Source: Massilia agilis (GTDB lineage Bacteria > Pseudomonadota > Gammaproteobacteria > Burkholderiales > Burkholderiaceae_D). Taken from it: a stretch of 64,000 nt of DNA. The stretch's first letter is position 1, and every line of letters starts with the position of its first letter. This document shows positions 12,446 to 59,430 of the stretch, one piece after another. The notes under the pieces are model-generated. The model saw only the letters and a list, made by a program, of their open reading frames with translations. It was not told the DNA's origin and searched no databases. Location: contig NZ_JANUHB010000002.1 of the NCBI RefSeq assembly GCF_024756255.1, positions 186,001 through 250,000 on the forward strand, read 5' to 3'. The position numbers and the translations under genes are program-made.

Positions 12446-12548
12446 CGTAGGGTGGGCGGGTTTCCCGCCCACGCGTTCAGACAGGGATCGCACAGCCGCA
12501 CTGCATCCGTTGCTTGAACGCGTGGGCGGACAAGCCGCCCACCCTACG
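12446..12548. repeat. Family A double-hairpin repeat, copy 1
   Basis: The left arm reads CGTAGGGTGGGCGGG, TTT, CCCGCCCACGCGTTCA. The right arm reads TGAACGCGTGGGCGG, ACAAG, CCGCCCACCCTACG. The arms are inverted copies of each other around a 35-base centre, and each folds on itself. The copy lies between convergent lysS and ppnN and is probably a bidirectional terminator. Confidence 0.88.
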
Positions 12549-12559
12549 GAGCCAACCGC

Positions 12560-13930
12560 TCAGCTGACGATCCGGTAGCACGGCACGTACGCCTTGCCCG
12601 GCAGCTTCATGCGGCTCTGCTCGACGAACGATGTGAGCAGCGCATCCATCGGCGCCATGATCTCCGGCTCGCCGTCGATCTCGAACTGGCCGTGCTTCTC
12701 GATCGCGCGGATCCCCTCTTCCTTCACGTTCCCCGCCACCACGCCCGAGAATGCGCGGCGCAGGTTTGCGGCCAGCAGGTGCTTTTCCTGGTTCTTGTGC
12801 AGCGACAGGTTGCGCATGTTCTCGTGCGTGGGCCGGAACGGGCGCTGGAACTCGTGGTCGATCTTGAGCAGCCAGTTGTAGTAATACGCGTCGCTGCGCG
12901 ACTTGCGGTACTCGCGCACCTGGCGGATCCCGGCCTGCATCTCGCGCGCCACCTCTTCGGGGTCGTCGATGATGATCTTGTAGCGGCGCTGCGCTTCTTC
13001 ACCCAGCGTGGCGCCAATGAAGCCATCGATCTGCTCGAAGTACGCGCGCGCCGACGCCGGGCCGGTGAACACGAGCGGGAACGGCATCTCCGCATTCTCC
13101 GGATGCAGCAGGATGCCGAGGATGTACAGGATTTCTTCCGCCGTGCCCGCGCCGCCCGGGAACACGACGATGCCATGCCCCGTGCGCACGAACGCCTCCA
13201 GGCGTTTTTCGATGTCCGGCATGATCACCAGGTCGTTGACAATCGGGTTCGGCGACTCGGCCGCGATGATGCCCGGCTCCGAGATGCCCAGGTAGCGGCC
13301 GCCGCCCAGGCGCTGCTTGGCGTGGCCGATGGTGGCGCCTTTCATTGGCCCCTTCATCGCGCCGGGACCGCAGCCGGTGCAGATATCCAGTTCGCGCAGG
13401 CCCAGCTGGTAGCCCACTTCCTTGGAGTAGTTGTATTCGCCGCGGCTGATCGAGTGGCCGCCCCAGCACACCACCAGGTTGGGATTGCGCTGCGGCTGCA
13501 GCACGTTGGCGTTGCGCAGGATGTGGAATACCGCGTCGGTGATGCCCTCGGGCCGGGCCAGGTCGAACTTGGGATTGTCGACGACCTCGAAATTGACATA
13601 CACGATATCGCGCAGGACTGCGAACAGGTGCTCGTGGATCCCCTTGATCATCTTCCCATCGACGAAGGCAATCGCCGGCGCGCCGCGGATATCGAGCTTG
13701 ATGCCGCGCTCGCGCTGGATGATCTTGATATCGAACGAACTGTAACGCTCCAATAACTCCTTGCCGTCATCGATCGAGCTACCGCAGTTCAGCACCGCCA
13801 GCGCGCAATTGCGGAAGATCTGGTACAGGCCGCCCTGGCTCGTGTCGAGCAGCTTGGCCACCTCGGCCTTCGACAGGATCTCGAGCCGCCCTTCCGGCGA
13901 AATCAGGGTGTCGACAACGTCGTGATTCAT
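12560..13930 (-). CDS. ppnN: Pyrimidine/purine nucleotide 5'-monophosphate nucleosidase (LOG family)
   Basis: PpnN (YgdH) cleaves nucleoside monophosphates into base and ribose 5-phosphate, tuning nucleotide pools; in E. coli it responds to (p)ppGpp. The 456-residue length matches E. coli PpnN (454). The N-terminal extension (DLYQ-like GGLYQIFRNCALAVLNCGS), the central VVCWGGHSISRGEY and the LOG signature PGGAGTAEEILYILG are present, followed by the PpnN-type C-terminal domain. I chose ATG 13930 because GGAAAAAG lies upstream and it aligns with the family N-terminus; the open frame reaches further to 14020 without family support. Confidence 0.9.
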   Translation of the reverse strand: MNHDVVDTLISPEGRLEILSKAEVAKLLDTSQGGLYQIFRNCALAVLNCGSSIDDGKELLERYSSFDIKIIQRERGIKLDIRGAPAIAFVDGKMIKGIHEHLFAVLRDIVYVNFEVVDNPKFDLARPEGITDAVFHILRNANVLQPQRNPNLVVCWGGHSISRGEYNYSKEVGYQLGLRELDICTGCGPGAMKGPMKGATIGHAKQRLGGGRYLGISEPGIIAAESPNPIVNDLVIMPDIEKRLEAFVRTGHGIVVFPGGAGTAEEILYILGILLHPENAEMPFPLVFTGPASARAYFEQIDGFIGATLGEEAQRRYKIIIDDPEEVAREMQAGIRQVREYRKSRSDAYYYNWLLKIDHEFQRPFRPTHENMRNLSLHKNQEKHLLAANLRRAFSGVVAGNVKEEGIRAIEKHGQFEIDGEPEIMAPMDALLTSFVEQSRMKLPGKAYVPCYRIVS

Positions 13931-14095
13931 CTGTTCTTTTTCCTTTGCTGATACCGGAACAATCCGGCTTTCTTGCCAATATACGACAAGTCGCGTCATC
14001 TTGCGTCCACGTTGGCGCAAGGGACGCGCGCGCCCATTACCACATCTCCAAAAAATTCGCTTGAACTCAACGATTTACACTAAAATGCGACCCTA

Positions 14096-14123
14096 TTGGA
14101 AAACGCCTTCCCGGGCTTTCCAA
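14096..14123. promoter_or_regulatory. Inverted repeat upstream of the POT transporter gene
   Basis: TTGGAAA (14096-14102) and TTTCCAA (14117-14123) are exact inverted copies with a 14-base spacer, 45 bases before the peptide transporter ATG. The centre-to-centre distance is two helical turns, as for a dimeric regulator site. The regulator is unknown. Confidence 0.4.
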
Positions 14124-14167
14124 ACTAATAAAGCATATTCTTATAAAACTATTTCGGGAGGAACCGC

Positions 14168-57618: not shown

Positions 57619-57654
57619 AGCTATTGGAGCGGTCCAGCAAGTAAAATTGCCGAC

Positions 57655-58104
57655 ATGATACCCGCTCCAGCCCAACGCATCGTCCTCGACACCAATGTTT
57701 GCCTCGACTTGTTCGTTTTCCACGACCCGCGCTGGGCGCCCCTCCTGGCCAGGCTGCAGTCCGGCGAGGTGGAAGCGGTGACGCGCGCCGACTGCCGCGA
57801 CGAGTACCTGGTGGTGCTGCACTACCCACACCTGCCGCTGGACGAGGCCAGCCGCGCGCAGGCGCAGGCAGCCTTCGACGCGCTCATCAAGGTGGTGGCG
57901 CCCGACCAGAAGGCGATCCGGCTGCCGGTTTGCACCGACCGGGACGACCAGAAATTCCTCGAGCTCGCGCGCGACGCGGCGGCGCAGGCGCTGGTCACCA
58001 AGGACAAGGCCCTGCTCAAGCTCGCGCGCAAGACTGCGCAGGCCGGCATGTTCCGCATCCTCACGCCCGAGGCGTGGGTCAAGGCGCTCGCGGCCGCCGC
58101 CTGA
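57655..58104 (+). CDS. PIN-domain protein, putative toxin (COG1569-like)
   Basis: This 149-residue protein has a PIN nuclease fold with the acidic metal-binding residues: Asp in [15 protein letters not shown], Glu in [16 protein letters not shown], and Asp in [31 protein letters not shown] precedes the last strand. The family is annotated as putative toxin components and would cut RNA. No antitoxin-like gene lies beside it: yaaA is upstream in the opposite direction and an aminotransferase follows after 102 bases. It may therefore be a solitary PIN nuclease with a housekeeping role. No strong ribosome site is seen before ATG 57655. Confidence 0.8.
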
Positions 58105-58206
58105 CCGGTACTGGCTTCGTCTGCAAAGCCGCTGGCGCTTGCGCCGCCTCCGGCACGCGCCGTGGCCGCGCGCTAGAATAGACGACTCGACATCGACATC
58201 CGCATC

Positions 58207-59364
58207 ATGACCACCCCAGTACTGCAATCGCGCCTGCCATCGGTCGGCACCACCGTCTTTTCCGTCATGTCCGCGCTGGCCTCAGAGCATGGCGCCGTCA
58301 ACCTTGGCCAGGGTTTTCCTGATTTTGCCTGCGATCCGCTCTTGCTCGACCTGGTCGATGCCGCCATGCGCGCCGGGCACAACCAGTATCCGCTCATGGC
58401 CGGCGCCCCTGCCCTGCGCAGCGCCATCGCCACCAAGATCGCGATGCTGTATGGCCGCCAGTACGATGCCAACGCCGAGATCACCGTCACCGCCGGTGCG
58501 ACCCAGGCGCTCACCACCGCCATCCTGTGCTGCGTGCATCCGGGCGATGAAGTGATCATCATCGAACCCGCGTACGACAGCTACCTCCCCGCGGTGGAAC
58601 TGGCGGGCGGTAAGGCCGTCACCGTGGCAATGCAGGTCGGGGAACAGGGCTACGTGGTGCCGTGGGACGCCGTTGCGGCAGCCGTATCGCCGCGCACGCG
58701 GCTCATCATCATCAACAGCCCGCACAACCCCACCGGTTCGATCCTGCGCGCGCACGACCTGGACGCGCTGGCCGCGATCGTCGGCGGCACCGATATCCTG
58801 GTGCTGTCGGACGAGGTGTATGAACACATGGTGTACGACGGCCAGCGGCACGAATCGGTGAGCCGGCACCCGGTGCTGGCCGAGCGCGCATTCGTCGTAT
58901 CCAGCTTCGGCAAGACCTACCACGTCACCGGCTGGAAGGTCGGCTACGTGGCTGCGCCCGCGGCCTTGATGGCGGAGTTCCGCAAGGTCCACCAGTACAA
59001 TGTGTTCACCGTGAACACGCCGATGCAGCACGGGATCGCAGGCTACATGGCCGATCCGGCTCCCTACCTCGAGCTGGCGGGGTTCTACCAGAAAAAGCGC
59101 GACCTGTTCCGCGAAGGGCTGGCGGGCACGCGCTTTACGCTGCTGCCGGCGGACGGCACCTACTTCCAGTGCGTGAAGTACGATGCGATTTCGTCGCTGG
59201 GCGAAGCGGAATTTGCCAAATGGCTGACGGCCGAGATCAAGGTGGCGGCGATCCCGGTGTCCGCGTTCTACCGCGAAGGCAAGGAGTCGGGCGTGGTCAG
59301 GTTCTGCTTTGCCAAGCAGGATGCGACCCTGCGCACGGCGCTGGAGCGGCTGGCCAAGGTGTAG
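58207..59364 (+). CDS. PLP-dependent aminotransferase (methionine aminotransferase YbdL-like)
   Basis: This 385-residue fold-type I aminotransferase resembles YbdL/kynurenine aminotransferase, which act on Met, Phe and related keto acids. Visible features are [68 protein letters not shown], the [13 protein letters not shown]sp/Tyr pair and the Schiff-base Lys in [23 protein letters not shown] at 58174-58179 is a likely -10. Its TAG stop (59362-59364) lies inside the first bases of a family A repeat. Confidence 0.9.
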
Positions 59365-59430
59365 GGTGGGCACTTGTGCCCACGCGCTTTAGGCGCCACG
59401 TGCGCGCGTGGGCTCGAGAGCCCACCCTAC
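59361..59430. repeat. Family A double-hairpin repeat, copy 6
   Basis: The left arm is GTAGGGTGGGCAC, TT, GTGCCCACGCGC. The right arm is GCGCGTGGGCTC, GA, GAGCCCACCCTAC. The apical stem is AC/GT on the left and TC/GA on the right. The left edge GTAG supplies the stop codon of the aminotransferase gene. It lies between convergent genes. Confidence 0.88.

What the first reader, a model, noticed from the sequence alone, without database searches (positions are those of the whole stretch)
12446..59430. Family A: six double-hairpin repeats with compensating changes in the stems
Copies at 12446-12548, 17658-17733 (degenerate), 24963-25063, 30754-30839, 56771-56844 and 59361-59430 share GTAGGGTGGGC...GCCCACGCG on the left and its inverse on the right. 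Each arm also folds alone, and its inner stem bases differ yet stay paired: GG/CC, AG/CT, TC/GA and AC/GT. This is covariation, so the folded form (DNA or RNA) is under selection. Five of six copies lie between convergent genes.
Basis: partly seen in the sequence, partly recalled or inferred. Interest (0 to 1): 0.72.

Follow-up and report, generated by a model that had tools for sequence, protein, structure and literature searches.

The report
Massilia REP doublets with cognate transposase
The repeats are REPINs, short inverted pairs of hairpins that a transposase called RAYT is thought to spread through bacterial genomes; here a Massilia genome and its sister species carry different RAYTs at one locus and different repeat types at many of the same gene ends, which makes it possible to study how one repeat population replaces another.

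Summary
Five intact copies and one remnant share GTAGGGTGGGC...GCCCACGCG arms with complementary inner stems; five of six lie between convergent genes. They belong to a large family: 545 exact arms in this Massilia genome, 0 for the reversed pattern. They are GTAG-class REPs in head-to-head doublets (REPINs/BIMEs). The genome's one class I RAYT (182 bits; matches E. coli TnpA_REP 4ER8) is flanked by the same REPs, and across the genus REP stem type follows RAYT lineage. Covariation is real (226 of 227 arms Watson-Crick at the first two inner pairs), but paired stem changes are published for REPs and fit hairpin recognition by RAYT; they do not show an RNA function. T-tracts follow only 6 of 470 hairpin sides, so they are not intrinsic terminators, although 107 of 132 lie within 30 nt of an upstream stop codon. 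So: a new member of a known kind. Beyond the finding: the sister species M. solisilvae has another RAYT (52% identical) at the same locus, and 19 of 30 intergenic regions with a short-type element here hold a long-type one there (6 of 276 REP-free regions do), often at the same nucleotide: a sharp case of the 'orthoswitch' named in 2013, mechanism open.

The parts
12447..12547 (.). REPIN (head-to-head REP doublet), long type; arms 12447-12475 (+) and 12519-12547 (-); 29 nt after the lysS stop, before the ppnN 3' end
   Evidence: in the 230 nt shown after lysS, M. solisilvae (G028) has no such REP but CGTC-type repeats and a terminator-like hairpin
17658..17733 (.). degenerate long-type remnant; only GAACGCGTGGGC and CGCCCGCCCTAC pieces of the right arm remain
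   Evidence: no arm found; z -2.2; also degenerate in M. solisilvae
24963..25063 (.). REPIN, long type; arms 24963-24991 (+) and 25035-25063 (-); 15 nt after the GST-like stop
   Evidence: M. solisilvae has an empty site here
30754..30837 (.). REPIN, long type; arms 30754-30782 (+) and 30809-30837 (-, GTAGCGTGGGC)
   Evidence: M. solisilvae has a long-type doublet with other inner stems that still pair
56771..56844 (.). REPIN, short type (TCTTGA / TCTCGA); 8 nt after the yfiO stop
   Evidence: M. solisilvae has a decayed long-type doublet here
59361..59430 (.). REPIN, short type (ACTTGT / TCTCGA); its GTAG supplies the TAG stop of the aminotransferase gene 58207-59364
   Evidence: M. solisilvae has a single long-type arm here

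Best explanation
These are REPINs: non-autonomous mobile elements made of two inverted GTAG-class REPs. Shown here: high copy number, head-to-head doublets, a class I RAYT (TnpA_REP) gene bounded by the same REPs, association of RAYT lineage with REP stem type across the genus, presence/absence differences from the sister species, and position just behind stop codons. Inferred: when a strand is single, each arm folds with GTAG at its foot, RAYT binds the hairpin and cuts and rejoins next to it (as shown in vitro for other TnpA_REP proteins, PMC8266576), and the doublet is copied or moved; copies survive mainly at gene 3' ends because insertions in promoters and genes are purged. Stem bases change in compensating pairs because an arm that no longer folds is no longer a substrate; the asymmetric foot (GTAGG/GCG) stays fixed. 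Added reading: two REPIN types (long GG/AG stems, short AC/TC stems) live in this genome; which RAYT sits at the RAYT locus differs between the sister species, and so does the type found at many shared sites.
For: 545 exact arms, reversed control 0. Neighbouring arms in C1: 82 head-to-head, 11 tail-to-tail, 3 tandem; head-to-head ones are type-pure, 40 LL (one an overlapping call), 42 SS, 0 mixed. Class I RAYT 182 bits, NF047646 cut-off 80, with GTAGGGTGGGCACTTGTGCCCACGC hairpins on both sides, matches 4ER8 at 2e-46. GTAG hairpins lie beside 41 of 52 class I RAYTs looked at (35 on both sides) and 1 of 15 class II (recount). 12 REP stem classes on 40 RAYTs need 13 changes on the tree (300 shuffles: at least 24); long/short needs 1 (shuffles at least 9). 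Exact arms are more numerous with a class I RAYT (37 genomes, median 63) than without (25, median 2), p 5e-7. Elements: 63 convergent, 67 co-directional, 5 divergent, 4 in genes; intergenic regions with one: 60/132, 67/489, 5/179.
Against: No transposition was observed. G000 keeps 340 exact long-type arms (87% of the long arms found in C1 with up to two mismatches are perfect) without a long-type RAYT or a fragment of one, so a resident cognate is not needed for their persistence, or was lost very recently, or the short-type RAYT serves both. G016 (203 arms, truncated RAYT) and G024 (89, no class I) lack a full class I RAYT; G046 and G049 have one but no arm of this pattern. 11 of 52 class I loci showed no GTAG hairpin with the strict finder, some of them because of imperfect stems. 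Genomes are not independent samples.
Confidence: 0.93

Rival explanations
1. The repeats are kept as RNA elements: two-way terminators or mRNA 3'-end guards placed behind genes, and the pairing changes reflect selection on the RNA hairpin.
For: 107 of 132 elements lie within 30 nt of an upstream stop codon; 62 of 67 co-directional ones are nearer the upstream stop; convergent regions are enriched. E. coli REPs are reported to act this way (recalled).
Against: T-tracts follow 6 of 470 hairpin sides, and intrinsic terminators are not rarer where a REP is present (10 of 59 vs 14 of 60 convergent, 10 of 66 vs 54 of 409 co-directional regions) with a crude finder. Avoidance of promoters and genes gives much of the same placement. 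Rho-dependent termination or mRNA protection is not excluded.
Confidence: 0.3
2. Covariation without selection: template switching at quasi-palindromes keeps correcting one arm to match the other.
For: Would also give perfectly paired inner stems.
Against: The unpaired asymmetric foot is not corrected: GTAGG in 216 and GCG in 213 of 227 arms. Stem types follow RAYT lineages.
Confidence: 0.12
3. Short and long REPINs share sites in the sister species only because both insert independently at the same permissive gene ends.
For: In convergent regions alone the excess is weak: 5 of 13 vs 3 of 25, p 0.09. 8 of 18 pairs have junctions more than 5 nt apart.
Against: All regions 19 of 30 vs 6 of 276, co-directional 14 of 17 vs 3 of 180; junctions agree within 5 nt in 10 of 18 pairs, 2.1 expected if re-placed at random in the same region.
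Confidence: 0.25
4. The RAYT-like gene at G000:C29 with a REP doublet directly after its stop is the driver.
For: A REP doublet starts 5 nt after its stop.
Against: 68.7 bits, under the family cut-off of 80. GTAGGGTGGGC is absent from 69 of 69 loci of relatives outside the species pair that I scanned (L033-L101; L102-L111 not scanned); hairpins that a loose finder saw beside some of them have other sequences, two with a GTAG tag (L070, L093). It resembles the TIR-flanked genes of PMC3733652.
Confidence: 0.03

Closest known systems
Haemophilus influenzae / H. parasuis REPs with RAYT NP_438385 / YP_002476161 (Nunvar 2010, PMC2817692, passages read)
   Same: H. influenzae: GTAGGGTGGGC foot and stem, RAYT gene flanked by the REPs; Table 1 gives GTAGGGTGGGCTTcAGCCCACC with 6/14/21 copies at 0/1/2 mismatches. 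H. parasuis is similar (GTAGGGTGGGTCTTGACCCACC)
   Different: Here GCG after the stem, longer variable inner stems, 545 exact arms, betaproteobacterial host; that paper found RAYTs meeting its criteria only in gammaproteobacteria, and one betaproteobacterial case (Thauera) with Pseudomonas-like REPs
REPINs of Pseudomonas fluorescens SBW25 (PMC3116915, passages read)
   Same: Inverted REP doublets as the unit, hairpin-forming spacer, compensatory changes noted, RAYT
   Different: Other REP sequences; here two populations with different spacers that hardly mix
REP orthogroups and orthoswitch in Pseudomonas and Stenotrophomonas (Nunvar 2013, PMC3686654, passages read)
   Same: Syntenic RAYT loci carrying different REP classes; several classes in one genome with a RAYT for only one
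   Different: They infer mutation of the flanking REPs; here the RAYT itself is only 52% identical between flanks of about 95% identity, and element types differ at the same sites
GTAG super-family of REPs (Di Nocera 2013, PMC3733652, two sections and passages read)
   Same: GTAG end, GC-rich stem, complementary stem changes, HH dimers, convergent and unidirectional placement
   Different: Oxalobacteraceae, Massilia, Janthinobacterium and Herbaspirillum are not named in its main text

Membership tests
GTAG-class REP / REPIN | GTAG (GTRG) tetranucleotide at the foot of a GC-rich palindrome of 20-40 bp | tested here: met
   GTAGG in 216 of 227 arms
GTAG-class REP / REPIN | high copy number across the genome | tested here: met
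   545 exact arms in 5.16 Mb, control 0
GTAG-class REP / REPIN | inverted doublets as the unit | tested here: met
   82 HH, 11 TT, 3 HT neighbours in C1, beside 46 single arms
GTAG-class REP / REPIN | extragenic | tested here: met
   135 of 139 elements between called genes (own gene caller)
GTAG-class REP / REPIN | cognate RAYT gene flanked by the same REP | tested here: met
   G000 class I RAYT with ACTTGT-type REPs on both sides; for the long type a RAYT with a long-type REP is found in M. solisilvae, none in this genome
GTAG-class REP / REPIN | mobility by RAYT | tested here: inconclusive
   presence/absence and type differences from the sister species; no movement seen
RAYT / TnpA_REP | HUH Y1 transposase of the REP-associated family | tested here: met
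   NF047646 182 bits, cut-off 80; 4ER8 2e-46, DHMH and DYVHFNP aligned to EHMH and DYIYINP; that these hold the catalytic residues is recalled
intrinsic terminator | T-tract after the hairpin | tested here: not met
   6 of 470 sides
Rfam RNA family | match to a curated model | tested here: not met
   0 matches in the window at gathering scores

The most novel reading that the evidence does not exclude
Resident REPINs are exchanged in place: when another RAYT cassette takes over the RAYT locus between its REP ends, its REPIN type displaces the older type as a whole doublet at the same nucleotide positions, so that REP sites behave as inherited slots whose occupant follows the current RAYT.
Probability: 0.35. 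Interest if true: 0.68.

Novelty: new member of a known kind. Interest (0 to 1): 0.42.

Why it matters
REPs are very common repeats of bacteria, yet how a REP population changes its sequence, and how RAYT copies it, is unsolved. This species pair offers a natural experiment: about 95% identical flanks, different RAYTs at one locus, two distinguishable REPIN types and 53 sites occupied in both species within the 800 kb compared, so models of spread (new insertion, conversion, exchange, differential loss) can be told apart by sequence and at the bench. It also shows that covariation in a repeat is weak evidence for an RNA function.

Tried and rejected
First gene caller mis-called antisense ORFs at two window sites and was replaced after Pfam checks. 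PF01797 found only the C29 gene, which I first took for the cognate RAYT; NF047646 then found a better one. One search failed to read most loci and was redone. The swap of RAYT is not proven by phylogeny alone: the AU test of the G000 and G028 RAYTs as sisters gives p 0.056; the case rests on 52% protein identity against flanks of 94.7 and 95.0%. The direction of the long/short exchange could not be settled: M. solisilvae has a few mostly decayed short arms (7 in 800 kb, 2 perfect) and, by eye, a short-arm remnant beside a long doublet (site 101), G000 has well-kept long arms, and the next relative G058 has 4 arms. In G028 one of 32 head-to-head doublets is mixed. Of 29 short-only elements of G000 with alignable flanks (regular-expression typing, one more with an irregular arm), 6 face no arm and 5 an unclear gap in G028, some with remnants by eye. 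No clear target-site duplication was seen at empty sites (by eye); C precedes GTAG in 66% of 158 ends. Rfam: nothing. Paper searches for GTAGGGTGGGC, REP/RAYT with Oxalobacteraceae and Massilia with REP showed, from the listings and abstracts' starts, no account of REPs in Massilia.
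Full report
What is there. The six copies are present at the stated places. The arm pattern gives 9 exact hits in the window, none in 100 shuffles. The five intact copies are pairs of arms pointing at each other with GTAG outside; the sixth is a remnant. Two kinds occur: long inner stems (GG/CC or AG/CT first; copies 12447, 24963, 30754) and short ones (AC/GT or TC/GA; copies 56771, 59361).

Genome-wide. The window lies in a 5.16-Mb genome, contig C12. The genome is a sister of Massilia solisilvae: handle G028 carries a 2-kb M. solisilvae stretch at 100%, the window's genome at 92%. 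The exact pattern occurs 545 times, 284 and 261 per strand, reversed control 0. Of 62 genomes of the genus 55 have at least one, from 0 to 545, this genome the most. In 1.54 Mb of contig C1, read as stretches, 235 arms with at most two mismatches form 139 elements.

Covariation. Of these 235 arms I used 227. At inner pairs 1 and 2, 226 of 227 are Watson-Crick, with G-C, A-T, T-A and G-C, C-G types; shuffling partners reaches at most 127 and 141. Within the short type alone pair 1 is 43 A-T and 47 T-A, all paired. At pair 3, 93 of 107 are Watson-Crick (shuffle maximum 61). The foot stays asymmetric, GTAGG in 216 and GCG in 213 (all). Orthologous long elements of the sister species often differ by paired changes (by eye). 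So covariation is real. Complementary or compensatory changes are already described for REPs and REPINs (PMC3733652; PMC3116915).

Placement. With a gene caller retrained until it agreed with Pfam-backed genes of the window, 60 of 132 convergent, 67 of 489 co-directional and 5 of 179 divergent intergenic regions of 30 nt or more hold an element (Fisher 1e-18 for convergent against the rest). Of 139 elements 132 have a stop codon within 400 nt upstream in the sense of the gene; 107 of these begin within 30 nt of it, and in 20 the stop is the TAG of the GTAG itself, as at 59361. T-tracts are rare (6 of 470 hairpin sides) and terminators are not depleted beside REPs.

The transposase. PF01797 finds one gene, on C29, a poor candidate. 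NF047646 finds three; the best, 182 bits, is on C1 at 1314136-1314579. Its 178-residue protein matches E. coli TnpA_REP 4ER8 at 2e-46, and the gene lies between short-type REPs. Passages of PMC8266576 report that such proteins recognise single-stranded REPs and cut beside them, with GTAG important. Of 58 class I genes listed at 160 bits or more I looked at 52 (six in G014, G023, G045, G048 and G054 were not fetched; one truncated gene and one of 158.7 bits were left out of the count). 41 of the 52 have a GTAG hairpin at one or both sides, against 1 of 15 class II loci looked at (recount). Stem classes of the flanking REPs follow the RAYT tree: 13 changes for 12 classes on 40 rows, shuffles at least 24; long against short 1 change, shuffles at least 9 (G046 dropped as a long branch). 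Short-type arms number 10 or more in 10 of 10 genomes chosen as carrying a RAYT of the matching clade or, for G000 and G012, an unresolved short-side RAYT, and in 0 of 52 others; this grouping was made after seeing the tree and leaves out the GGGCGC and GGGCAC4 clade of the short side.

The sister species. G028 has a class I RAYT at the same place, but the two proteins are 52% identical while the DNA on either side is 94.7 and 95.0% identical; its upstream REP is long type, its downstream one was not recognised. G000 has no long-type RAYT or piece of one elsewhere. G000 has 188 short and 340 long exact arms, G028 9 and 354. Of 756 intergenic regions of C1, 347 could be mapped onto 800 kb of G028. 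Those with only short elements here hold a long one there in 19 of 30 cases, REP-free ones in 6 of 276 (Fisher 1e-17); co-directional 14 of 17 against 3 of 180, convergent 5 of 13 against 3 of 25, the last not significant. In 18 short/long pairs the junctions agree within 5 nt in 10, with 2.1 expected under random re-placement in the same region. Head-to-head doublets of G000 are type-pure, 40 LL, 42 SS, none mixed (one mixed of 32 in G028), so whole doublets rather than single arms seem to be exchanged. In the window both short copies, 56771 and 59361, have long-type relatives at those places in G028; 24963 is an empty site there; 30754 is long in both with different paired stems; 12446 has no REP there; 17658 is degenerate in both.

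Reading. These are REPINs of the GTAG class with their RAYT: what they are is known. Syntenic RAYTs with different REPs were described as orthoswitches with unknown mechanism, inferred to start from mutation of the REPs beside the RAYT (PMC3686654). Here replacement of the RAYT gene itself fits better, and the types differ site by site at shared junctions. Exchange in place, differential loss from mixed sites and shared insertion hotspots remain open. The direction is not settled: the good state of long arms in G000 without their RAYT and the decayed short arms in G028 speak against a simple story of one new arrival. The searches listed no paper on REPs in Massilia.

Noticed in passing
window 4185-4276, 37487-37546, 41635-41758, 51133-51232: A second inverted-repeat family (CGTCGTCCCGGCG...CCGGGACCCA and kin) that looks like the CGTC super-family of Di Nocera 2013; the same kind of repeat lies in the lysS-ppnN gap of M. 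solisilvae where this genome has a REPIN.
   Followed up: partly
window 41772-48227 (-): A very large gene with 13-14 repeats spaced 243-378 nt apart, perhaps a repetitive surface or secreted protein; not searched against families.
   Followed up: no
L001 1459-2160 (G000:C29): A TIRYT-like Y1 transposase gene with GGGGACAG motifs upstream and a REP doublet 5 nt after its stop.
   Followed up: partly
class II RAYT-like genes, e.g. L143 (G000:C23:111665-112087): A second RAYT clade, seen in many of the 62 genomes, mostly without GTAG hairpins at its sides (1 of 15 looked at has any); its substrate is unknown.
   Followed up: no
C1 of G000: In 20 of 132 elements the TAG of the REP's GTAG is the stop codon of the upstream gene.
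   Followed up: partly
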